A stretch of 24,631 nt of DNA from a virus: positions 1 to 24,631 of IMG/VR virus record IMGVR_UViG_3300024264_001583. One strand, 5' to 3'. The notes under the pieces are model-generated. The model saw only the letters and a list, made by a program, of their open reading frames with translations. It did not search any database and was not told where the DNA came from. The position numbers were made by a program, and so were the translations under genes. Positions 332 to 8,623 of this stretch are shown one piece after another; position 1 is the stretch's first letter, and each line of letters begins with the position of its first letter.

Positions 332-383
332 ATACAGACACTAACAAATTAACTATCCGCAAAGGAAAGGACACAGTTTGAAG

Positions 384-1316
384 ATGAAAATAATCGCAGG
401 TAATAGCAATAGGGCATTAGCACAAGATATTGCAGAACACTGTTTTGCTGGACTGGTACCAGCTACAATATCAACATTTGCAGACGGAGAAACAAGCGTC
501 GAGTTTGAAGAAAACGTTAGAGGCGAGGATGTGTTTATTATACAAAGTACATCATCACCTGTAAATGATAGTTTAATGGAATTGCTTATTATGATTGATG
601 CGGCAAGACGATCAAGTGCTAGTCGTATTACTGCTGTTATTCCTTACTTTGGTTATGCTAGACAAGATCGTAAGAGTGCAAGTCGTACTCCTATTACAGC
701 AAAACTAGTTGCTAACCTATTAACAACATCAGGCGCAGATAGAATCCTTACAATGGATTTACATGCAGGACAGATACAAGGTTTCTTTGATATTCCAGTG
801 GACGATTTAACAAGCCGTAAAGTATTTGCTAAAGACATCAAGTATAAAGTTAACACAGAAGAGCCAACAGTATTTGTATCACCAGATGCAGGTGGTGCTG
901 TTAGAGCTCGTAAGTTTGCAGACATGTTCCATGGAGACATTGCTATTGTAGACAAGCGTAGGCCTGAAGCAGGCAAGAGCGAAGTAATGGCACTGATTGG
1001 TGATGTTGAAGGCAAACATGCTATTCTAGTTGACGACATTGTTGACTCAGGCGGAACATTATGTAGTGCGGCCAAAGCAATTATGGACGCAGGTGCATTG
1101 TCAGTTCGTGCTTATATTACACATGGTGTATTGTCAGGCGAAGCATGTAACAAGGTTGAAAAGAGTGTGTTAGAGGAGTTAGTAGTTACAGATAGTATCA
1201 ACGATCGTTGTCCTAAGAACTGTAAAAAGACACGACAGGTTAGTGTCGCGCCTTTATTTGGTGAAGCAATCCGTAGAGTATCAAACGAAGAAAGCGTTAG
1301 TAGTTTATTTTCCTAA
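384..1316 (+). CDS. prs: Ribose-phosphate pyrophosphokinase (PRPP synthetase)
   Basis: Makes PRPP from ribose 5-phosphate and ATP in the cytoplasm. PRPP feeds purine, pyrimidine and NAD synthesis. The protein is 310 residues from ATG 384, close to the usual ~315. It starts with the family's typical MKIIAGNSN, has the catalytic flexible-loop region ([14 protein letters not shown], about residues 94-107), the [13 protein letters not shown] segment, and the PRPP-binding loop [10 protein letters not shown] (about 217-226). A TTG at 378 in the same frame is better spaced from the purine-rich AAAGGAAAGG (361-370) and would add two residues. I prefer 384 from family N-termini, but the choice is open. 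The 3' end overlaps the convergent lipase gene by 12 bases. With nrdA, nrdB and guaC in this window it suggests phage control of nucleotide supply. Confidence 0.95.
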
Positions 1317-2140: not shown

Positions 2141-2404
2141 ATGCGTAAGAAAACACGAAGCATACTAGAAGAACTTAATAACTTAGGTAAACCTAAGAAT
2201 GATGACCTTCTAATTGAAGCAACGGCAAGTAACATAATTGAAAGCTCTATTAATTTGCTTAATATGATTCACCGTGTTTACGATCAAGACAATGCCGCTG
2301 AATTAGAAAGACGTTTTCTTAATAGTATTAGATCTGGCGACCCTAGAAAGTTTAAAAGAAGCATATCAAGAATTATTGAAGGAAAAAATAATGATACTGA
2401 ATGA
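2141..2404 (+). CDS. Small conserved-type phage protein, function unknown
   Basis: An 87-residue charged, mostly helical protein with no signal peptide or membrane segment. It opens the plus-strand cassette that follows a late-type promoter motif (2113-2120), with AGGA about 10 bases before the start. The N-terminal half contains EELNNLGKPKNDDLLIEA and the C-terminal half ELERRFLNSIRSGDPRKF. Proteins of this look occur in marine T4-like phages near head and tail genes, from memory, but no function is known to me. It overlaps the next gene by 14 bases, which suggests coupled translation and a shared virion role. Confidence 0.75.
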   Translation: MRKKTRSILEELNNLGKPKNDDLLIEATASNIIESSINLLNMIHRVYDQDNAAELERRFLNSIRSGDPRKFKRSISRIIEGKNNDTE

Positions 2405-3158
2405 AGGTGGAAACATATTCCAAGGTACAGAACCGTTTGATCATAAGATAATACCTGCTATGATGAAACAAATTAACTCTGTAACAACTAAAACAGGTGC
2501 CAAAGCATTACCAATTGGATCAGGAGCATCACCTACACCAGGTAAGATAAGCGGCGACCTTGATATGATTATTGACGCTGGAGCATTGTTTAAGCATTTT
2601 AATGTTACAACTCCTAAAGATGCAAGAATAGAATTAGAAAAGTTATTTCAACAAGCAGGATATGAAACAAAACGTAGCGGAACAAGTGTCCATGTTAAAA
2701 CAACAGCAGGCAAAGCAGCACAGCAAGTTGACATAATGGTTGTTGCCAATGGCGACACAGCACAAAAGTTTCACGTTCATGACATACCAAAAGGTTCACC
2801 GTATAAAGGTGTACACAAGCAAATACTAATTGCAGACCTAGCAAAGAATACAAAGAATGAAAATCATCCAGAAGGCATGAAGTGGAGTGCATACAAAGGA
2901 TTATTAGATCGTAGAGATGATGCTATGATATCTAATAACTTAGATGAAATTGCCAAGATACTTTTAGGTGGTGATGCCAAAGCAAAAGACTTAGCATCAG
3001 TTGAAGCAATGGTTGCTAAAAGTCCTAGGGCTAAAGACCTAGTAGACAAGCAAGAACAAAACGAGTTTGCTGACACACCATGGAAGAAATCAAAAGTAGC
3101 TGTAGAAACATTAGGTGAAAAACAACTACGTAGATTAAAAGAGTTACTTCCGCGATGA
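2391..3158 (+). CDS. Pol-beta-type nucleotidyltransferase-like protein
   Basis: A 255-residue protein with the signature of the polymerase-beta nucleotidyltransferase fold. GS (43-44) is followed by eleven residues and DLD (56-58, in KISGDLDMIID). A third carboxylate, Asp114, lies in the hydrophobic strand QQVDIMVVA. Members of this fold transfer NMPs to RNA, DNA, proteins or small molecules, and the substrate here cannot be read from sequence. The ATG at 2391 is chosen because GAAGGA lies seven bases upstream; a TTG at 2376 in frame is weaker. The N-terminus MILNEGG has an L-N-E site like a T4 prohead-protease cleavage site. The stop overlaps the start of the next gene (ATGA), tying it to the ligase-like protein. 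Confidence 0.8.
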   Translation: MILNEGGNIFQGTEPFDHKIIPAMMKQINSVTTKTGAKALPIGSGASPTPGKISGDLDMIIDAGALFKHFNVTTPKDARIELEKLFQQAGYETKRSGTSVHVKTTAGKAAQQVDIMVVANGDTAQKFHVHDIPKGSPYKGVHKQILIADLAKNTKNENHPEGMKWSAYKGLLDRRDDAMISNNLDEIAKILLGGDAKAKDLASVEAMVAKSPRAKDLVDKQEQNEFADTPWKKSKVAVETLGEKQLRRLKELLPR

Positions 3159-4246
3159 GATTTACAGAGTTTAGACATACGTTAACAGAAGCGGCCAAAG
3201 TTGGTAGAGAATATCAGCACTTGGAAGACCTTGTATTTGTTAACGGGTCTCAAGGCGCACTTAAAGCCGCTGACGTACTAGACAACTTAGGAACTGATAG
3301 TTCAGATGTTGCAATCAAATGGGACGGTAATCCTACTATCTATTGGGGTAGAGAAAATGACGGAACATTTGTAATGGTAGGTAAAAACGGCTGGGGCAGA
3401 AACAAAAGTAAGAGTGCAGAAGACCTTGCTAACTTTATTAAGAACTCAGGTAAAGGTGAAGAGTGGCGCGAAAAGTTTGGTAATGATATGGGTACAATTT
3501 TTAATGTACTTAAGAATGCAACTCCGCCAAGTGTAAATCAATATGTGTATGGTGATTTATTATATTATCCTGGTAAGCCGTATATAATTAACGACGGCAA
3601 AATACAATTTACACCTAACAAAGTTACATATACTGTAGATGCAAACAGTGACATAGGCAAACGTATTGCACAAAGTAAAGTAGGTGTTACTGTACACACA
3701 CGTTACGATGAATTTGGCGACAAAGCAGGACAACCTATACAACAAACAGGCGAATTAAATAATAAAGATGTTGTTGTGCTAGGACAAACATATGTTTCAC
3801 ATCAACCTGAAGTTAATACAAAAGAAACAGATAAAATACGTAAGCAAGTAAATGCCCATGCAGGCCACATAGATAAGTTCTTAGCGGGTACACAGGGATT
3901 AAGTAATCCAGCACAAATCATTTACACCTATATGAATCATATGACTCGCACACGACAAATAGATAATATAGAAAACGGATTTTTTGATTGGCTTAAAACA
4001 AGCAAAGTTAGTCAAGGACAACAGGCAAAACTAGCGGCAATGAATGAAAGCAATCCAGAGGCATTGCCAGCAATCTTTAGTTTAGTAAAACAAATAATGA
4101 TTGCAAAGGATGATGTCATTACACAACTAGACGGAGCAGATGCAGATATCAAAGCATCGACAGGCGATGAGCAAGGCGGCGAAGGTTACGTTGCTCAAAA
4201 GTCAAAAATAAAACTGGTTCCACGAACTAGGTGGCAACCAAACTAA
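3155..4246 (+). CDS. Ligase/capping-type covalent nucleotidyltransferase-like protein
   Basis: A 363-residue protein carrying motifs like those of ATP-dependent DNA/RNA ligases and mRNA capping enzymes. Motif I (KxDG) is KWDG at 55-58, with Lys55 as candidate nucleophile. A motif III-like strand is YVYGDLLYY (130-138). Motif IV (EGxV) is EGYV (343-346), and KIKLV (351-355) resembles motif V. The gap between III and IV is long (about 200 residues) and IV to V is short, so this is a divergent member at best. From memory the family is common in T4-like marine phages but is annotated as unknown. The N-terminus MRFTEFRHTLTEAA carries L-T-E followed by A, like a prohead-protease site. It overlaps the preceding nucleotidyltransferase gene. 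Confidence 0.7.
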   Translation: MRFTEFRHTLTEAAKVGREYQHLEDLVFVNGSQGALKAADVLDNLGTDSSDVAIKWDGNPTIYWGRENDGTFVMVGKNGWGRNKSKSAEDLANFIKNSGKGEEWREKFGNDMGTIFNVLKNATPPSVNQYVYGDLLYYPGKPYIINDGKIQFTPNKVTYTVDANSDIGKRIAQSKVGVTVHTRYDEFGDKAGQPIQQTGELNNKDVVVLGQTYVSHQPEVNTKETDKIRKQVNAHAGHIDKFLAGTQGLSNPAQIIYTYMNHMTRTRQIDNIENGFFDWLKTSKVSQGQQAKLAAMNESNPEALPAIFSLVKQIMIAKDDVITQLDGADADIKASTGDEQGGEGYVAQKSKIKLVPRTRWQPN

Positions 4247-4259
4247 AAGGAAAAATAAA

Positions 4260-4628
4260 ATGAAAATTAATGAATTAATTTTAGAAGCAGACTTTGATAT
4301 GGATTACCGTCCAGGTCTTGATCCGCATGGATCAGAATTAGACAAAGACGATGATAGTGTAGCGGTCAAACTTAAAGGTGAGCCTATGCAAGTCCAGCTT
4401 ATGAGAATTGAAGATTCAGAAGAAGACGACGATATTAAAAATCCTGTAAGAAGTGTTGTAACTTCAGACAACGAGAAGATTAGAGTTGAACGTCCTGAAG
4501 CTGTAGCAATACTTAAAGCACTTAAGAGCCCAACAGGTAAGCCACAACAAAAACTACAACTTCAACAGAAAATTCAAGACTCAGCAGGGTTAATCAGCAT
4601 TCTTAATATCTTACGCAAGAAGAAGTAA
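4260..4628 (+). CDS. Acidic capsid-internal-type protein, function unknown
   Basis: A 122-residue protein with an acidic first half (DKDDDSVAV, EDSEEDDDI) and a basic helical tail ending ILRKKK. It has no membrane segment. The N-terminus MKINELILEADF matches the recurring M-x-I-x-E-L pattern of this block, with I-L-E followed by A as a possible prohead-protease site. That suggests head-internal location, which is inference. AAGGAAAAATAAA just before the ATG gives a ribosome site. It overlaps the next gene by one base (TAATG), so the two are probably translated together. Confidence 0.75.
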   Translation: MKINELILEADFDMDYRPGLDPHGSELDKDDDSVAVKLKGEPMQVQLMRIEDSEEDDDIKNPVRSVVTSDNEKIRVERPEAVAILKALKSPTGKPQQKLQLQQKIQDSAGLISILNILRKKK

Positions 4629-5002
4629 TGGACTTTCTTAGAGCATTGGAAAACAATACTGAGATACAGCCTGACAAAGAGTCAGCTGAGTTACTCGGTA
4701 AGTTAGAAGAACTACAATTAGTTTTTAACGATCTAGAAGAGCTAGATGAAGGCGCATTTGACCGCATTGAAAAGCGTGTCGAAGCAAGAGACCTAGCTCT
4801 GTATAGAATGATTGTAGGTCAACGTAATATGATGCTCACTAAAAAGTTCTTAGAACTAGCACTTGCTGGCAAAAGCGTACCTAGCACAATGGTAAAAGGC
4901 TTTGTTCCTGCACTAGAAATGCTGGATGATATCGTTACAGCAGGCCCAGGATATGTTCAAATGCTTAAATTACTCCATCAAAGAGCCAAAAAAGGCTCAT
5001 AA
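4628..5002 (+). CDS. Helical phage protein, function unknown
   Basis: A 124-residue protein predicted to be all helical. It has an acidic Leu-rich stretch (GKLEELQLVFNDLEELDEG, about 24-42) and a charged middle (RIEKRVEARDLALYRM), and it ends in a basic tail (HQRAKKGS). I do not recognise the family. It is translationally coupled to the preceding gene through TAATG and is the last gene before a new late-type promoter at 5024, so it likely ends the 2.1-5.0 kb operon. A virion or assembly role fits its place but nothing in the sequence proves it. Confidence 0.7.
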   Translation: MDFLRALENNTEIQPDKESAELLGKLEELQLVFNDLEELDEGAFDRIEKRVEARDLALYRMIVGQRNMMLTKKFLELALAGKSVPSTMVKGFVPALEMLDDIVTAGPGYVQMLKLLHQRAKKGS

Positions 5003-5023
5003 TCAACATTTTTTATAAAAAAA

Positions 5024-5031
5024 GATAAATA
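5024..5031 (+). promoter_or_regulatory. Late-type promoter motif GATAAATA
   Basis: GATAAATA differs from the T4 late consensus TATAAATA in the first base only. It lies 64 bases before the gene at 5095, with the leader hairpin between them. A T4-like start point would fall around 5037, putting the hairpin at the very 5' end of the message. Confidence 0.6.
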
Positions 5032-5041
5032 ATAATAAGCA

Positions 5042-5058
5042 CTCCGAGGAGCTCGGAG
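5042..5058 (+). promoter_or_regulatory. 5'-leader stem-loop upstream of the 124-residue protein gene
   Basis: CTCCGAG (5042-5048) and CTCGGAG (5052-5058) form a perfect seven-pair, GC-rich stem with a three-base loop in otherwise AT-rich DNA. It sits between the late-type promoter and a strong ribosome site (AAAGGAGA, 5081-5088). The position suits an mRNA-stabilising 5' hairpin or a regulator-binding element. Confidence 0.6.
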
Positions 5059-5094
5059 CGTGTCATTAGATATTATATTTAAAGGAGAAATAAA

Positions 5095-5469
5095 ATGGCA
5101 ACACAAGCAAAAGTAAATGGTTTAACAACCGCAGGTAGTTTTTATGGATATGATCCAATCATCCTTAAGATTACAGGAACAAACGTAGCAACAGCAGATA
5201 CAGCATCTGTAGACGGCGTAGCAGCTTTTACACAAGGTAACCTTTCAAAAGCAATTAGTGCAATTCAAACACAAATGAGCGTTGTACACGTTGGCGAAAG
5301 AGCTAACAACATTGTATGTGTAATGGTTGACTCAGCAACAGCAAACGCATATGTTTCAGCTAACACTGACACAGACGTAGCAGCAGCTGTTAAAGCATTA
5401 GTAGATACAGCAACAGGTGTAACATCAACTGTAGCAGCTATCACACTAACAGCAGGCGACTTAGCATAA
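5095..5469 (+). CDS. Abundant small virion-type protein, function unknown
   Basis: A 124-residue Ala/Thr/Val-rich protein with few charged residues, beginning MATQAKVNGLTTAGSF and ending in repeated Thr-Ala-rich strands. The composition suits a beta-rich structural protein such as a small capsid decoration or tail component. I do not recognise the family. It is a single-gene unit: late-type promoter (5024), 5' hairpin (5042-5058), very strong ribosome site (AAAGGAGA, seven bases before the ATG) and an intrinsic terminator (5519-5550). Codons are strongly biased to GCA, ACA and GTA. This packaging suggests high late expression, which is inference. Confidence 0.8.
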   Translation: MATQAKVNGLTTAGSFYGYDPIILKITGTNVATADTASVDGVAAFTQGNLSKAISAIQTQMSVVHVGERANNIVCVMVDSATANAYVSANTDTDVAAAVKALVDTATGVTSTVAAITLTAGDLA

Positions 5470-5472
5470 GAA

Positions 5473-5518
5473 TTCCTAGCTACCTTTAGGAACCGTGATG
5501 TTATAAAGGCGTCACATC
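5473..5518 (+). other. Two small stem-loops before the terminator
   Basis: TTCCTA (5473-5478) pairs with TAGGAA (5487-5492), and TGATGT (5496-5501) pairs with ACATCA (5514-5519), the latter touching the terminator stem. Together with the terminator they give three hairpins in a row in the 3' untranslated region. They could protect the message 3' end or be chance in AT-rich DNA. Confidence 0.4.
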
Positions 5519-5550
5519 AAAAGGCTCACTTTTTAAGTGGGCCTTTTTTT
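5519..5550 (+). terminator. Intrinsic terminator after the 124-residue protein gene
   Basis: AAAAGGCTCAC (5519-5529) pairs with GTGGGCCTTTT (5537-5547) with one G-U pair, a seven-base loop and a run of seven T residues ending at 5550. The next reading frame begins at 5551, the base after the T-run. Confidence 0.92.
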
Positions 5551-5949
5551 ATGGCTATAAGTATTAACATGCGTTTTATATTAAAAACTTTAGTAGATAT
5601 TACACCAACCTATGCTCGTAGAACTGAGGATAGATACATGTACAATCAACACCAAAACTATATGACAGTAGTTAATACACTAGGGTTGCGTAGTAATCCA
5701 TTATCTGTTGTTGTTACAGAAGAAATAGAGTCTACAAAATACTTTGGCTCAACTTACACAGGTGAACAAAAAGTTTGGACAATTGAGTTTGAAATAGAAC
5801 GTGAAGGAAGTTTAGAAGTACCTATGTTAAAAGAAGACTTTAATTTAGTGCCCTTTATACGTGGGTTGAGTGAATCTGTAGAGCTTGATAATTCCATTTT
5901 TCAATCAACTAATAAGAAGTATAAGAACATATATTTTGAACAGATATGA
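5551..5949 (+). CDS. Structural-type phage protein, function unknown
   Basis: Up to 132 residues, beginning MAISINMRFILKTLVDIT. The body is a mixed alpha/beta protein with no membrane segment and an acidic C-terminal half (EREGSLEVPMLKEDF). Similar proteins with an FILKTLVDIT-like start are, from memory, conserved near structural genes in T4-like cyanophages, without known function. The start is uncertain. ATG 5551 directly abuts the T-run of a terminator and has no ribosome site. ATG 5569 (MRFILKT) matches family starts better but also lacks one. How the gene is expressed is unclear, because any transcript from upstream must read through the terminator. Confidence 0.75.
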   Translation: MAISINMRFILKTLVDITPTYARRTEDRYMYNQHQNYMTVVNTLGLRSNPLSVVVTEEIESTKYFGSTYTGEQKVWTIEFEIEREGSLEVPMLKEDFNLVPFIRGLSESVELDNSIFQSTNKKYKNIYFEQI

Positions 5950-5955
5950 TAAATA
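5948..5955 (+). promoter_or_regulatory. Late-type promoter motif GATAAATA
   Basis: GATAAATA overlaps the stop codon of the preceding gene and lies 105 bases before the gene at 6061. The leader would contain the 13-base tandem repeat and a small hairpin. Confidence 0.5.
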
Positions 5956-5980
5956 AAAGTATACAACAAAAGTATACAAC
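5955..5980 (+). repeat. Tandem 13-base direct repeat
   Basis: AAAAGTATACAAC occurs twice back to back (5955-5967 and 5968-5980), sharing its first base with the end of the late-type promoter motif. The core GTATAC is palindromic. Confidence 0.8.
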
Positions 5981-6060
5981 AAAACAAACAGGCATCTATT
6001 TTAAGGCTAACTACGAGTTTACTTAACAAAATCCTTGAGCAGGATATACGGAGATAATAG

Positions 6061-6291
6061 ATGGCCACCAGCCTAGAAAAGAAAAACTTAGAAGCACACG
6101 TTGATTTATGTCAAGAAAGATATGAACAACTTGAAGCACGTCTTACTAAAATAGAAACCAAAGTAGAACACATTCATAAAGATATCACCGATGGGCAAAA
6201 GTCTATGACTAAAGTGCTTGTTGGCACAGCTGGCACAATCGTTGCTGGTTTACTTTCCACAATAATCGTAATTTTATTAAACGTTAATTAA
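6061..6291 (+). CDS. XhlA-like small protein: coiled coil plus C-terminal membrane anchor
   Basis: A 76-residue protein with a heptad-rich charged helix (about 5-48, including EQLEARLTKIETKVEHIHKD) followed by one hydrophobic segment (about 53-74, VGTAGTIVAGLLSTIIVILL). This arrangement matches haemolysin XhlA/holin-accessory proteins that act at the inner membrane during lysis. The motif match is by architecture only, so a structural or membrane-tethering role is an alternative. CGGAG lies about seven bases before the ATG. The leader holds a late-type promoter, a 13-base tandem repeat and a short hairpin (ATCCT 6031-6035 with AGGAT 6041-6045). Confidence 0.65.
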   Translation: MATSLEKKNLEAHVDLCQERYEQLEARLTKIETKVEHIHKDITDGQKSMTKVLVGTAGTIVAGLLSTIIVILLNVN

Positions 6292-6294
6292 TCC

Positions 6295-6302
6295 GATAAA
6301 TA
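6295..6302 (+). promoter_or_regulatory. Late-type promoter motif GATAAATA, very close to a start codon
   Basis: GATAAATA ends only five bases before ATG 6308. With T4 geometry transcription would begin at or next to the start codon, which would make the message leaderless or nearly so. Confidence 0.5.
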
Positions 6303-6307
6303 ACTAT

Positions 6308-6613
6308 ATGTTATTAAGAGAGATTACCTTACCGCTTGACGATCTAGAAGAAGCTAAAATGGCTTGGGCTAAACGTGGCAACAAAGTTGTTCGTAAGTTT
6401 AGATGTGCTGGCGGCAGACGACATGGACGTATTGTTTCTAATATTGCTCAGTGTTTTGCAAAGCCTGACATGAAGAAACGTTTAAAACTTAAAGTTACTA
6501 AAGCAAGGCTTGGTGCTAAAATGGCACGTAAGGCACGTAAGACTAAAAGAGTAAGTTCAGCAAGTCGCAGAGTAGCAGCTCTTAATAAAGCAAGTAGACC
6601 AAAGAGATTATAA
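6308..6613 (+). CDS. Very basic capsid-internal-type protein, paralogue 1
   Basis: A 101-residue, strongly Arg/Lys-rich protein. The conserved core VVRKFRCAGGRRHGRIVSN ends in IAQC, giving two cysteines about 17 residues apart, and a long basic tail follows (MARKARKTKRVSSASRRVA). The composition suits nucleic-acid binding, perhaps DNA packing in the head. The N-terminus MLLREITLPLDDLEEAK fits the block's M-x-L-x-E-I pattern, with L-E-E followed by A as a possible prohead-protease site. No ribosome site is visible, and a late-type motif lies almost at the ATG. The start is supported by its paralogue, which begins the same way. It overlaps that paralogue by one base (TAATG). Confidence 0.8.
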   Translation: MLLREITLPLDDLEEAKMAWAKRGNKVVRKFRCAGGRRHGRIVSNIAQCFAKPDMKKRLKLKVTKARLGAKMARKARKTKRVSSASRRVAALNKASRPKRL

Positions 6614-6939
6614 TGTACTTAAGAGAGTTGACAGAAACAACTTCAATAGAAGAAGGAGCAACTAGCATTTACGGCCGTAAAGGCGGAAAGAATGTTCGTA
6701 AGTACAGATGCAACAGTGGTCCACGTAAAGGACGTATTGTTGCAAAGATGGCAACATGCACAGCACCAAAGAGTATTAAGAAAGCAACTACTCTTAAGAA
6801 AGTAAAACGTGCTGGAGCAAAACGACAAGCGGTTAAGATAGCAAGAACAAAAAGAGCAAACCCTGCATCAAGCAGATTACCTAAAGTAAACAAGGGTATA
6901 AGAACTAGACGTAAACAGTCTAAGGCCAAGAGGATATAA
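6613..6939 (+). CDS. Very basic capsid-internal-type protein, paralogue 2
   Basis: A 108-residue paralogue of the preceding protein. The core NVRKYRCNSGPRKGRIVAK ends in MATC with the same cysteine spacing, and the basic tail ends RRKQSKAKRI. The N-terminus MYLRELTETTSIEEGA again fits the M-x-L-x-E-L pattern, with L-T-E and I-E-E sites. The pair probably arose by tandem duplication. A DNA-condensing or internal head role is inferred from charge, paralogy and the N-terminal signal. Start ATG 6613 is fixed by the overlap with the preceding stop (TAATG). Confidence 0.8.
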   Translation: MYLRELTETTSIEEGATSIYGRKGGKNVRKYRCNSGPRKGRIVAKMATCTAPKSIKKATTLKKVKRAGAKRQAVKIARTKRANPASSRLPKVNKGIRTRRKQSKAKRI

Positions 6940-6940
6940 A

Positions 6941-7201
6941 ATGAAAATTAATGAAATTACAGAAATGCAAGGATCTAAGCCTGCAATTATTAAAAACCTC
7001 AAGCCAGGACAAAGTGCAGAGGTAGATAATATGGACGGCACTAAAACTATTATTGATCTTAAAAAGAATCCATCAGCACTACAAAAAGATCCTAAGACTA
7101 AAAAAGTCACTATAAACAAAAAGCCCCAACCGGGCACGAAAACCAATCCAGCAACAACTGTTAAAAGAGGCGACAAGGTTTTCGCAACACCAGGACAATG
7201 A
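6941..7201 (+). CDS. Small basic phage protein with capsid-targeting-like N-terminus
   Basis: An 86-residue Lys/Pro/Thr-rich protein, probably poorly structured at its C-terminal half (KKPQPGTKTNPATTVKRG). The N-terminus MKINEITEMQG fits the block's pattern, with I-T-E as a possible prohead-protease site. The middle (about 24-40, PGQSAEVDNMDGTKTII) may form a small beta unit. I do not recognise a family. It begins one base after the preceding stop and overlaps the next gene by four bases (ATGA), so it is part of one translated chain. Confidence 0.72.
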   Translation: MKINEITEMQGSKPAIIKNLKPGQSAEVDNMDGTKTIIDLKKNPSALQKDPKTKKVTINKKPQPGTKTNPATTVKRGDKVFATPGQ

Positions 7202-7410
7202 AACTAAACGAGTTAATTAATAGCTTTAGTATAGCTATTTCGAATGAGGAAGCAGAGGTATTAGAAAAAGTAAACCCTGTGCAACCCCTACAAGGCTTTT
7301 CTCCTAGAGAACAAGTCATAATTGATAACTTAATAAGGAAAAGTCTAGTAAGTAAAATACTGAAAGACAATATTGTAATGGTGGTGCAAAATGAATTCGG
7401 AACTAGCTAA
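7198..7410 (+). CDS. Small phage protein, function unknown
   Basis: A 70-residue helical protein starting MKLNELINSFSIAI, so it shares the M-x-[IL]-x-E-L start of its neighbours. No clear (L/I)-x-E cleavage site follows. A second half, SPREQVIIDNLIRKSLVSKI, looks like a short amphipathic helix pair. It overlaps the preceding gene by four bases and the next by 20 bases. The family is unknown to me. Confidence 0.68.
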   Translation: MKLNELINSFSIAISNEEAEVLEKVNPVQPLQGFSPREQVIIDNLIRKSLVSKILKDNIVMVVQNEFGTS

Positions 7411-7816
7411 TAGACTTGAAAGTTTAATAAACAGCAAGATACAAGATTATCCACTACCTGTAGTGAATGGTAACAGTATACGTATTAAGAACTACATTGT
7501 AAGATATAGTAAACGTGCCGGTGCATGGTTAGTATATGACAGCAAAGAAAATGTCCAAGCAGGAAAGTTCTTTGCAAAGACTAGTGCAATAGCATTTGCC
7601 AAAGTAAATGCGTCAAATGACTCATATCTAAGTGCAACTATAAACAGGCTAGATGATGTACTAAGCAAACACTATCAAGATTGTGTATTTTACAATCACA
7701 GTATGAAAGTTACTGAAGACGAAATCAAATATGATGTTTTATCTACTAGATTTGACATAAGTTATAGTATAGCACAAGACGTAAAGTCGCAACTGGATGA
7801 ACTAATCCTGTGCTAG
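7391..7816 (+). CDS. Phage protein, function unknown
   Basis: A 141-residue mixed alpha/beta protein without membrane segments or motifs I can name. The first half contains a strand-rich section (NSIRIKNYIVRYSKRAGAWLVYDSK, split here as IRIKNYIVRY and AGAWLVYDSK). The second half is helical with NRLDDVLSKHYQDC. It overlaps the previous gene by 20 bases and has GGTGG just upstream of the ATG. It ends just before a late-type promoter (7819), so it closes the 6.3-7.8 kb chain. A virion role is a guess from position. Confidence 0.7.
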   Translation: MNSELANRLESLINSKIQDYPLPVVNGNSIRIKNYIVRYSKRAGAWLVYDSKENVQAGKFFAKTSAIAFAKVNASNDSYLSATINRLDDVLSKHYQDCVFYNHSMKVTEDEIKYDVLSTRFDISYSIAQDVKSQLDELILC

Positions 7817-7818
7817 AT

Positions 7819-7830
7819 GATAAATAAATA
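7819..7830 (+). promoter_or_regulatory. Overlapping late-type promoter motifs
   Basis: GATAAATA (7819-7826) and AATAAATA (7823-7830) overlap directly after the preceding stop codon. They lie 31-35 bases upstream of the start at 7862, a good distance for a short leader with the AGGAAA ribosome site at 7848-7853. Confidence 0.6.
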
Positions 7831-7861
7831 TACAAAGAACAACACATAGGAAAGTTGAACA

Positions 7862-8623
7862 ATGAATATAAGAGAAATATCAAAACCAATTACAGCTAAG
7901 GCACTTAATGAGAGCCTAGCAAAGAAGTTTGGCCAGCGTCTAAACTTAGAAGAATTTACACTTGTGCAACTACAAGATGCTCAAAACAAACTAAGAACAA
8001 CACTTAGTCAAGTAGAAACAAAAGAAAGTTTCAACGCAACACAAACACCAGCATATCAAAAATCAAAACTTTTCCTAGATGTTCTTAATGCTGAAATTGG
8101 TGAAAGATCTGATATTGATGAGCCTGTACTTGAAGCAACTATTACTGAAGGCGAAGAAGATAAAGCAGAATTAGTAATGGCAGCCAAAGACATGGTAGAC
8201 CGTGTAACGGGTTGGATGGAAGACACAGCAGAAATGCAAACAGAATCAATGCTTGAACTAGCAGATGCTATTAGAGACGAGATGGGTAGTGAGCAAGCTG
8301 AGTCATTCACTAACACTATTAAGCCAGCACTAGAGCAAATGTACGAAGTAATGGAAACTACACGTTCTGCACTTACAAACGGTGTAGGTATGCTTACAGG
8401 TGAAGGCGGCGCTGAAGAGCCTATGGGCGACGAGCTAGGCGATATGGGTGACATGGGTGACATGGAACCAACAGACGACATGGATGCGGAAGCACCAGCA
8501 GACGACATGGACATGGACATGGGCGATGACTTTGGTGCAGACGATGCTGCGGCAGGCGGAGAAGATGAAGCTGGTCGTGAAAAGCGTGAAAGTGTTGAGC
8601 GTTCAAAAAAAAAGCTCAAATAG
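7862..8623 (+). CDS. Asp-rich head-associated-type protein, zero-frame part
   Basis: A 253-residue zero-frame product. It starts MNIREISKPITAKALNESL, matching the block's N-terminal pattern with L-N-E followed by S as a possible prohead-protease site. A helical region follows, then an acidic low-complexity segment at about 180-237 built from Gly-Asp-Met and Asp-Asp-Met units. The frame stops at TAG 8621-8623, right after a nine-A run. The -1 frame stays open from that run to 8925 with a sensible domain. The full protein is therefore probably made by -1 frameshifting, giving about 354 residues. The alternative is a homopolymer sequencing error. By type and place it may be a scaffold-like or internal head protein. 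Confidence 0.8.
   Translation: MNIREISKPITAKALNESLAKKFGQRLNLEEFTLVQLQDAQNKLRTTLSQVETKESFNATQTPAYQKSKLFLDVLNAEIGERSDIDEPVLEATITEGEEDKAELVMAAKDMVDRVTGWMEDTAEMQTESMLELADAIRDEMGSEQAESFTNTIKPALEQMYEVMETTRSALTNGVGMLTGEGGAEEPMGDELGDMGDMGDMEPTDDMDAEAPADDMDMDMGDDFGADDAAAGGEDEAGREKRESVERSKKKLK

What the first reader, a model, noticed from the sequence alone, without database searches (positions are those of the whole stretch)
2391..4246. Adjacent Pol-beta-type and ligase-type nucleotidyltransferase-like genes, overlapping and possibly packaged in the head
The 255-residue protein shows GS-x11-DLD plus a third Asp114. Its overlapping neighbour shows KWDG, YGDLLYY, EGYV and KIKLV in the order of ligase motifs I, III, IV and V. 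One family adds nucleotides and the other seals or caps through a lysine-AMP intermediate. Side by side, with one stop/start overlap, they suggest an end-repair or tagging system, for example tRNA or DNA-end repair against host defence. Both have N-termini with (L/I)-x-E sites like T4 capsid-targeting sequences, so they might enter the cell with the DNA. The motifs are seen directly. The joint function and delivery are inference, and the motif IV-V spacing is atypical.
Basis: partly seen in the sequence, partly recalled or inferred. Interest (0 to 1): 0.8.

Follow-up and report, generated by a model that had tools for sequence, protein, structure and literature searches.

The report
Phage polymerase-and-ligase-like repair gene pair
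A marine phage carries two overlapping genes that look like a tiny gap-filling polymerase and a strand-sealing enzyme, probably packed into its head, and relatives of the second gene may be the sealing enzyme that some ocean cyanobacterial phages seemed to lack.

Summary
The motifs are real and conserved. P1 (2391-3155) keeps G43, DLD and Asp114. Its model matches family-X DNA polymerases over palm and thumb (Foldseek E 8.2e-6, the 50 rows shown all Pol lambda/beta; VIA Z 11.2). P2 (3155-4243) is DUF6267. In 58 sequences down to 23% identity K55, D57, G58, D134, E343, G344 and K353 never vary, but its fold evidence for a ligase is only suggestive (Foldseek E 0.011; VIA Z 6.9). The genes overlap as ATGA in 83 of 85 loci. 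P1 relatives also sit beside or near other KxDG genes in Atu_ph07, Phosso and PA5oct; the PA5oct P1 relative is tagged ESI-MS/MS. 75 of 79 P1 proteins carry [LIVM]xE before a conserved GG; three begin with Met there. I read the pair as a virion-borne fill-and-seal module; DNA versus RNA is undecided. Against a tight pair: DUF6267 often sits beside a HIGH-type nucleotidyltransferase instead. In seven cyanophage-type records four known ligase families give nothing, while DUF6267 is present.

The parts
2391..3158 (+). P1: Pol X-like nucleotidyltransferase, 255 aa (palm plus thumb)
   Evidence: Model pLDDT 90.7; Foldseek E 8.2e-6 to Pol lambda; VIA Z 11.2, 165 residues, model 4-204; no credible Pfam or PHROG family
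3155..4246 (+). P2: DUF6267 protein with ligase motifs I, III, IV and V, 363 aa
   Evidence: PF19782 E 4.6e-32; motif residues invariant in 58 of 58; model pLDDT 88.6; weak ligase fold matches
3155..3158 (+). ATGA stop/start overlap of P1 and P2
   Evidence: same overlap in 83 of 85 loci holding both genes, the other two differ (loci not de-duplicated)
2517..2564 (+). P1 residues 43-58, G-S-x11-D-L-D active-site loop
   Evidence: D56 and D58 50/50, G43 49/50
2730..2732 (+). P1 third acidic residue D114 in Q-V-D-I-M
   Evidence: 50/50
2397..2411 (+). P1 residues 3-7, L-N-E then G-G: candidate prohead-protease site
   Evidence: [LIVM]xE directly before GG in 75 of 79 non-redundant members, Met at that place in 3, other in 1
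3155..3190 (+). P2 residues 1-12, capsid-targeting-like N-tail ending L-T-E
   Evidence: Model pLDDT under 50 for residues 1-17, yet T11 48/51 and E12 50/51; tail pattern in 47 of 62 window-type and 0 of 33 cyanophage-type relatives
3317..3328 (+). P2 K55-W-D-G, motif I (candidate adenylylated lysine)
   Evidence: 58/58
3548..3559 (+). P2 Y132-G-D-L, motif III-like
   Evidence: D134 58/58
4181..4192 (+). P2 E343-G-Y-V, motif IV
   Evidence: E343 and G344 58/58
4205..4213 (+). P2 K351-I-K353, motif V
   Evidence: K353 58/58, K351 38/58
2141..2404 (+). upstream gene, virion structural family phrog_11854
   Evidence: E 3e-14
4260..4628 (+). next gene, 122 aa, N-terminus MKINELILEAD (targeting-like)
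7862..8623 (+). head-and-packaging family phrog_14154 (E 1.5e-14), N-terminus MNIREISKPI (targeting-like)

Best explanation
P1 and P2 are a translationally coupled fill-and-seal pair. P1, a minimal Pol X-like enzyme made of palm and thumb only, would add one or a few nucleotides at a gap or end using the D56/D58/D114 metal site. P2, a divergent KxDG nucleotidyltransferase, would take AMP on K55 and activate a 5'-phosphate so that the strand is sealed. In the family P2 ends 11-21 residues after the motif V lysine, so it has no C-terminal OB domain; P1 may supply nucleic-acid binding. Both are made in a virion-gene cluster, targeted to the prohead by short N-terminal tails cut at (L/I)-x-E, and delivered with the genome, so that they act on ends at entry, more likely DNA than RNA. 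Shown: genes, conservation, P1 fold prediction, neighbourhoods, one P1 relative tagged as a virion protein. Inferred: both activities, adenylylation, substrate, processing, delivery.
For: P1's fold matches Pol lambda/beta across palm and thumb. Catalytic residues are invariant in both families. The ATGA overlap holds in 83 of 85 loci. P1 relatives lie against a different KxDG gene, overlapping, in Atu_ph07 and Phosso (KLDGS, EGVV; PF09414 E 0.002 and 0.085, both below cut-off) and about 1.3 kb from one in PA5oct (KIDGY, EGYV), so the partnership recurs with other ligase-like genes. PA5oct EST35_0231 is tagged 'structural protein, ESI-MS/MS'. LxE|GG in 75 of 79 P1, M|GG in 3, and MGG starts in Atu_ph07 and Phosso suggest that GG is the mature N-terminus. 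A polymerase X fused to a ligase domain does gap repair in Phaeocystis globosa virus (PMC5537341, abstract read).
Against: P2's ligase fold match is weak: no PDB hit at E <= 0.001, best 0.011, VIA Z 6.9, and the tool warns that Z under 8 may be a common arrangement. Profile comparisons of A4 with T4 Rnl1, Rnl2 and gp30 sets, and of A3 with five bacterial PolX, gave probability at most 2.6%. Partners are not fixed: 43 of 102 non-redundant DUF6267 loci have a HIGH NTase downstream and no P1 upstream, seven cyanophage-type records lack P1, and P1 occurs apart from P2 in contigs G002 and G004. Divergence is discordant: L037 has P2 78% but P1 30% identical, L023 34% and 66%. Five of seven P1-bearing contigs carry a PF01068 DNA ligase and a sixth a T4-Rnl1-type RNA ligase (G009), so P2 would be an extra ligase there. 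DUF6267 is not among the 30 proteins listed for the S-SZBM1 virion, and the ligase-like PA5oct EST35_0228 bears no ESI-MS/MS tag. The T4-type protease PF03420 was found in 1 of 7 P1 contigs. No ligase-like neighbour was seen on P1's strand in Lak-B5.
Confidence: 0.52

Rival explanations
1. The pair repairs RNA: P1 restores missing nucleotides of tRNAs cut by host anticodon nucleases and P2 rejoins them, like the RlaP nucleotidyltransferases that accompany phage RNA ligases.
For: The nearest folds of P2 include RNA ligases: Foldseek ranks 1-5 are tRNA ligases, Palaeococcus RNA ligase and T4 Rnl1, and Naegleria RNA ligase is first in VIA; six of BFVD ranks 14-30 are named RNA ligase, one DNA ligase. 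T4 Rnl1 has EGYVAVMKDGSHFKIK where a cyanophage DUF6267 has EGYVLHKDGSMIKFV. The Atu_ph07 partner is closest to PF09414 RNA_ligase, below cut-off. RlaP with RNA ligases is described in PMC7824862 (passages).
Against: P1's best folds are template-using DNA polymerases including the thumb, and none of the 13 Pfam families listed for 44 P1 members is a nucleotidyltransferase model (that PF10127 is the RlaP model is recalled). No tRNA gene in the window. DUF6267 sits in the replication cluster in four annotated cyanophages. In the VIA list RNA and DNA ligases lie within about 1 Z of each other near the top.
Confidence: 0.25
2. P2's true partner is the HIGH-type (NMNAT-like) nucleotidyltransferase. 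P2 is an adenylyltransferase in NAD+ or small-molecule chemistry, or an NAD+-using ligase whose released NMN is recycled by the HIGH enzyme; P1 is only a neighbour.
For: HIGH gene downstream within 1.5 kb in 43 of 102 non-redundant loci without P1 upstream. One PHROG family, phrog_455 (764 positions), matches DUF6267 at 19-341 and a cytidylyltransferase at 406-695, and a 591-aa S-PM2 protein named cytidyltransferase-like matches P2, which I read as fusions. A HIGH gene is present elsewhere in P1-P2 contigs G001 and G003. HIGH proteins are reported in cyanophage virions (PMC9146016 Table 1; PMC9602691 passages).
Against: NCBIfam's NMNAT model hits one HIGH protein far below cut-off (22.3 versus 112.45 bits). 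In 48 loci P2 follows P1 with no HIGH gene downstream. P1 relatives lie by other ligase-like genes, with no HIGH-profile match at E <= 0.1 among the neighbouring proteins tested.
Confidence: 0.14
3. The two proteins are virion structural or scaffold-associated proteins that kept old folds and have no catalytic role.
For: They lie among virion and targeting-like genes, and a P1 relative is tagged structural.
Against: Catalytic residues stay invariant while P1 falls to 28% and P2 to 23% identity.
Confidence: 0.05

Closest known systems
Family-X DNA polymerases (Pol beta, Pol lambda; the two-domain PolX of African swine fever virus is recalled, not fetched)
   Same: Palm and thumb fold; G-[GS]...D-x-D...D active site
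   Different: No 8-kDa or fingers domain; G-to-D spacing 13 in the window's P1 versus 11 in bacterial PolX (GSFRRARETVGDLD); no Pfam PolX hit; C-terminal extension after about residue 205
PolX-ligase of Phaeocystis globosa virus (PMC5537341, abstract)
   Same: Pol beta-like core joined to a ligase function for gap repair
   Different: There one protein with an NAD+-dependent ligase domain; here two genes, and P2 matches no ligase family model
RlaP nucleotidyltransferase with Rnl1/Rnl2 RNA ligase in phages (PMC7824862, passages)
   Same: Pol beta-type enzyme encoded with a ligase
   Different: P1 matches no Pfam nucleotidyltransferase model and resembles template-using polymerases
T4 RNA ligase 1 (gp63)
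   Same: KxDG, EGYV and a short IV-V hairpin with K-x-K
   Different: P2 family has 285-317 residues between motifs I and IV against 128 in Rnl1, and only 11-21 residues after motif V
DUF6267 / phrog_455 of cyanophages
   Same: P2 is a member
   Different: Window-type members carry an N-tail and follow P1; cyanophage ones lack the tail pattern and P1 and precede a HIGH NTase or appear fused to one
T4 internal proteins and Alt with capsid-targeting sequences
   Same: Short N-terminal tail with L/I-x-E-like sites (T4 ipII MKTYQEFIAEA, gp24 MAKINELLRE)
   Different: Processing and packaging not shown here

Membership tests
Pol beta nucleotidyltransferase superfamily (P1) | G-[GS]...D-x-D and a third acidic residue | tested here: met
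   D56, D58, D114 50/50, G43 49/50; S44 36/46
Pol beta nucleotidyltransferase superfamily (P1) | characteristic fold | tested here: met
   Foldseek E 8.2e-6, prob 1.00, 129 matches at E <= 0.001, first 50 shown; VIA Z 11.2; a model, not a solved structure
Family-X DNA polymerase (P1) | palm followed by thumb | tested here: met
   model 9-205 aligned to Pol beta 142-335, e.g. 4jwn_A, Z 11.0; domain borders of Pol beta recalled
Family-X DNA polymerase (P1) | Pfam thumb or other PolX model | tested here: not met
   PF14791 absent in the window; no Pfam PolX model listed for 44 members; profile match to five PolX, probability 2.6%
Family-X DNA polymerase (P1) | template-directed gap filling | not testable with these tools
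   needs enzyme assay
RlaP (P1) | RlaP profile (PF10127 recalled) | tested here: not met
   not among the 13 Pfam families listed for 44 members at E <= 1
RlaP (P1) | gene linkage to an RNA ligase | tested here: inconclusive
   KxDG neighbours in Atu_ph07 and Phosso, PF09414 E 0.002 and 0.085, both below cut-off
Covalent (KxDG) nucleotidyltransferases: ligases and capping enzymes (P2) | motifs I, III, IV, V with the lysine, acid, EG and lysine kept | tested here: met
   58/58 at K55, D57, G58, D134, E343, G344, K353
Covalent (KxDG) nucleotidyltransferases (P2) | nucleotidyltransferase fold | tested here: inconclusive
   best Foldseek E 0.011; VIA Z up to 6.9, the 50 rows shown being ligase entries or NHEJ complexes that hold ligase IV
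Covalent (KxDG) nucleotidyltransferases (P2) | lysine-AMP intermediate | not testable with these tools
   needs labelled-ATP assay
ATP-dependent DNA ligase (P2) | PF01068 match and C-terminal OB domain | tested here: not met
   only DUF6267 and a sub-cut-off DUF2229 hit; chain ends 11-21 residues after the motif V lysine
RNA ligase Rnl1/Rnl2 (P2) | family profile | tested here: not met
   no PF09414 or PF09511 hit among families at E <= 1; profile comparison with T4 Rnl1 and Rnl2 sets, probability 0.3 and 0.4%
T4-type capsid-targeted internal protein (P1, P2) | N-terminal propeptide with L/I-x-E site | tested here: inconclusive
   P1 75 of 79; P2 tail pattern 47 of 62; patterns set after seeing the sequences; 3 of 104 other T4 genes also match
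T4-type capsid-targeted internal protein (P1, P2) | found in virions | tested here: inconclusive
   PA5oct P1 relative tagged ESI-MS/MS, its ligase-like neighbour not; cyanophage DUF6267 without tail not among 30 S-SZBM1 virion proteins

The most novel reading that the evidence does not exclude
DUF6267 is a new ligase family: the long-missing DNA ligase of T4-like cyanophages and, joined to a Pol X-like enzyme in other phages, half of a virion-delivered end-repair machine that fills and seals the genome, or host-made breaks in it, at the moment of entry. The HIGH-type enzyme beside it would regenerate its NAD+ cofactor.
Probability: 0.17. Interest if true: 0.9.

Novelty: new variant of a known kind. 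Interest (0 to 1): 0.72.

Why it matters
If true, tailed phages carry a polymerase X and a ligase-like partner into the cell with their DNA. The only viral polymerase X-ligase combination that I noticed in the listings of my two literature searches on this (20 and 10 papers listed) is one fused protein of a giant algal virus (PMC5537341). It also bears on an open question in print: a 2010 review says that g30 DNA ligase homologues are not found in cyanomyoviruses and that either distant homologues are unidentified or the gene is absent, which it thinks more probable (PMC2984593, passages). DUF6267 is nearly as widespread there as gp41 (Synechococcus 368 versus 376 records, Cyanophage 61 versus 61; counted by first word of the name with different E-value limits, not matched record by record) and lies in the replication cluster. 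One enzyme assay would test this.

Tried and rejected
Sequence searches for a named family of P1 failed: Pfam, PHROGs, tblastn of the window protein in 50,697 phage records, PDB profiles (best E 2, terminal uridylyltransferase Tailor, aligned at the right motif but not significant). P2 against PDB sequences gave nothing useful (best E 1.2, unrelated). Profile-profile tests against PolX and ligase alignments were uninformative: the alignments held 5 to 33 sequences.

A simple 'either P1 or HIGH' exclusion was rejected: whole contigs show both enzymes in the same genome with DUF6267 beside one or the other.

The idea that P2 is the sole ligase of the window-type phages was rejected: five related contigs carry PF01068 and a sixth PF09511. 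The idea that the gene before DUF6267 in cyanophages is a P1 relative was rejected: no score in the five phages tested. A scan for the exact T4 late-promoter octamer found no excess (1 match, 2.76 expected). Targeting-tail statistics against all 110 T4 genes tested are weak (P 0.037); that T4 sample was chosen to hold the packaged proteins.

A second divergent P1 (L171) found no phage record. In the VIA lists only ligases (P2) and Pol X (P1) are shown; other families are not excluded by their absence.
Full report
OBSERVATION. The window is a 24,631-base virus record. P1 matches no Pfam or PHROG family at a useful score; P2 is DUF6267 (PF19782, E 4.6e-32) and phrog_455 (E 2.6e-17). No paper in the library holds the word DUF6267.

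CONSERVATION. Scans of viral contigs gave 25 P1 loci, the best 80 of 250 for P2, and the best 80 of 494 and 80 of 314 with alignments. Of the 238 loci held at that point 192 hold both genes, 18 P1 only and 28 P2 only (many loci overlap or repeat each other, and some end near the gene). Where both occur in the first set, 83 of 85 have the ATGA overlap. In 46 P1 sequences (relatives 28-99% identical to the window's) G43, S54, G55, D56, D58, D62, H101, Q112 and D114 are invariant. In 58 P2 sequences (relatives 23-88%) K55, W56, D57, G58, D134, F152, E343, G344, K353 and R357 are invariant.

FOLD OF P1. The model has mean pLDDT 90.7. Foldseek against PDB: best E 8.2e-6, probability 1.00, TM-score by query length 0.51; 129 matches at E <= 0.001; the 50 rows shown are all Pol lambda or Pol beta. 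VIA: Z 11.2, rmsd 3.1, 165 residues, model 4-204 against Pol lambda 373-575, and model 9-205 against Pol beta 142-335. That is palm plus thumb (borders recalled); the rest of the chain, from about residue 205, is extra. Bacterial PolX genes read GSFRRARETVGDLDILI at the same place. A profile comparison with five of them aligned QVDIMVV with QVDLRVI, but at probability 2.6% only.

FOLD OF P2. The model has mean pLDDT 88.6, with residues 1-17 under 50. Foldseek: no PDB match at E <= 0.001; the best is the adenylyltransferase domain of Candida tRNA ligase (E 0.011, probability 0.51), and ranks 1-8 are ligase entries. VIA: best Z 6.9 (180 residues, 4.5 A, Naegleria RNA ligase); the 50 rows shown are ligase entries or NHEJ complexes that hold ligase IV. 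The tool warns that such Z can arise from common arrangements. In BFVD the 13 matches at E <= 0.001 include unnamed phage proteins, cytidyltransferase-like proteins and one named ribonucleotide reductase; among ranks 14-30 six are named RNA ligase and one DNA ligase. The chain ends 11-21 residues after K353 in all 58, so a C-terminal OB domain is lacking. T4 Rnl1 reads EGYVAVMKDGSHFKIK at motifs IV-V; the S-RSM4 DUF6267 reads EGYVLHKDGSMIKFV.

PARTNERS. Among 102 non-redundant DUF6267 loci, 48 have P1 upstream and no HIGH NTase within 1.5 kb downstream, 43 the reverse, 1 both (L155), 1 neither by a 300-nt rule (L157, whose P1 lies about 420 nt upstream by the coordinates), and 9 lack room on one side. 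The loci came from P1, P2 and cyanophage queries, so the proportions follow the queries. Whole contigs show that this is not exclusion: G001 and G003 have P1-P2 together and a HIGH gene elsewhere; G002 and G004 have P2 beside HIGH and P1 elsewhere. The family phrog_455 matches DUF6267 in its first half and a cytidylyltransferase in its second. P1 and P2 do not always travel together: L037 has P1 30% and P2 78% identical to the window's, L023 66% and 34%. Seven cyanophage-type records have no P1: P-TIM40, ACG-2014j, S-RSM4, DSL-LC02, and contigs G005-G007, which were found with the P-TIM40 protein and whose hosts are not known.

P1 OUTSIDE THIS GROUP. A divergent P1 found Atu_ph07 (E 7e-7) and Phosso (E 2e-4), and from Atu_ph07 the search reached 23 records: Pseudomonas 11, Prevotella Lak 9, Agrobacterium 2, Sinorhizobium 1, at E up to 1e-3. 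The P1 profile scores 12.0, 18.1, 25.6 and 46.6 bits in Atu_ph07, Phosso, PA5oct and Lak-B5, the best of the 14 or 11 local proteins given being these four. In Atu_ph07 and Phosso the gene directly upstream, overlapping P1, has KLDGS and EGVV; Pfam RNA_ligase scores E 0.002 and 0.085, both below cut-off. In PA5oct a gene with KIDGY, EGYV and QVKIV lies about 1.3 kb upstream with two genes between, without a Pfam hit. In Lak-B5 no KxDG was seen in ORFs of 150 aa or more on the same strand of the 8.5-kb stretch; the other strand was not read. With the four added, G7, G55, D56, D58, Q112, D114, M116 and G140 are 50/50.

PACKAGING. I did not see the proteomics paper. In 75 of 79 non-redundant P1 proteins [LIVM]xE stands directly before GG; in 3 the start Met stands there, 1 differs, and 3 hits without the pattern were set aside. 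Atu_ph07 and Phosso start MGG. So the propeptide-like part is replaceable by a start codon, as expected if GG is the mature end; a structural role of the glutamate would look similar. P2's first 17 residues are disordered in the model yet conserved; the tail pattern occurs in 47 of 62 window-type and 0 of 33 cyanophage-type DUF6267 (DLP_6 counted with the latter; its MMKFTQFLAES looks tail-like but misses the pattern) and in 10 of 49 HIGH proteins. 7 of 39 window genes match, 7 of the 12 from 3155 to 8623. In two T4 stretches 9 of 110 genes match: ipI, ipII, ipIII, alt, its duplicate alt.-1, gp24 and three others. The pattern was set after reading the window. T4 internal proteins and Alt carry N-terminal targeting propeptides cut by gp21 and enter the host (PMC7411985 and PMC9958956, passages). 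In S-SZBM1 the HIGH enzyme (start MRFRQFIIEA) is among 30 virion proteins and its neighbour DUF6267 (SSZBM1_141, no tail) is not (PMC9146016, section 27; map). NMNAT-like virion proteins are also reported for S-SCSM1 and S-CBWM1 (PMC9602691, passages) and a cytidylyltransferase for S-CREM2 (PMC10665884, section 18). Against: the T4 protease family was found in 1 of 7 P1 contigs.

CYANOPHAGE LIGASE. PF01068, PF09414, PF01653 and PF09511 give nothing at E <= 0.01 in the same seven cyanophage-type records; T4 as control is found by the first, second and fourth, and 11 of 14 control genomes by the third. DUF6267 is present in all seven. Five of seven P1 contigs have PF01068, and G009 has PF09511; G004 and G009 are records of 113 and 69 kb. 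DUF6267 sits between gp41/MazG and gp61 in four annotated cyanophages (by their product names and order). DLP_6 has both DUF6267 and a PF01068 ligase, so DUF6267 is not always a substitute. S-CREM2 is said to carry a ligase (PMC10665884, passage), so the lack is not general in cyanophages.

VERDICT. The step to activity, to DNA rather than RNA, and to delivery is inference.

Noticed in passing
L046, L059, L095, L103, L225 downstream of DUF6267: A HIGH-type nucleotidyltransferase (GRLNPPTIGH or GGFHPFHPGH) with a targeting-like start (such as MLLRELYEA, MLLRELFEA) follows DUF6267 where P1 does not precede it; phrog_455 looks like a fusion of the two.
   Followed up: partly
P1 C-terminus in 28 of 90 unique proteins; small genes downstream of the HIGH gene (L046, L059, L103): A shared motif like L..IK.L[AS]G occurs in the last 40 residues of P1 and in small proteins such as MDDLEYIKKLAGVNEFKGY; perhaps a docking signal.
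   Followed up: no
window 6308-6613, 6613-6939, 6941-7201, 7198-7410, 7862-8623: Run of genes with the N-terminal pattern M-x-[IL]-x-E-[IL], two of them short, basic and similar to each other by eye; they look like T4-style internal head proteins.
   Followed up: partly
window 378-1316 and 1305-2072: Ribose-phosphate diphosphokinase (NCBIfam 466.8 bits, cut-off 297) and, on the other strand, a class 3 lipase just upstream; a similar kinase is also near P1 in contig G002 (by eye).
   Followed up: no
L037-type versus window-type loci: P1 exists in two forms about 30% identical that sit beside nearly the same P2 (78%), as if P1 alleles were swapped.
   Followed up: no
BFVD H8ZNG8; L424 5188-6276: A 728-aa cyanophage protein named NrdB ribonucleotide reductase matches P2's model, and the C-terminal part of the S-SZBM1 HIGH protein hits a family named ribonucleotide reductase: probably a naming error spread by a shared domain.
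   Followed up: no
L425 4773-5561, L426 4833-5510, L142 5445-6380, window 4628-5002: Genes after P1 in the jumbo phages look by eye like the gene that follows P1 in this group, hinting at a wider conserved virion block.
   Followed up: no
L239 5151-5930, L241 3443-4969, L242 3829-4980: The gene before DUF6267 in cyanophages differs between phages; one reads like a restriction-endonuclease-type protein by eye.
   Followed up: no
contig G009, 8337-8900: A contig with P1 and a DUF6267 copy interrupted by one TAA also carries a T4-Rnl1-type RNA ligase.
   Followed up: no
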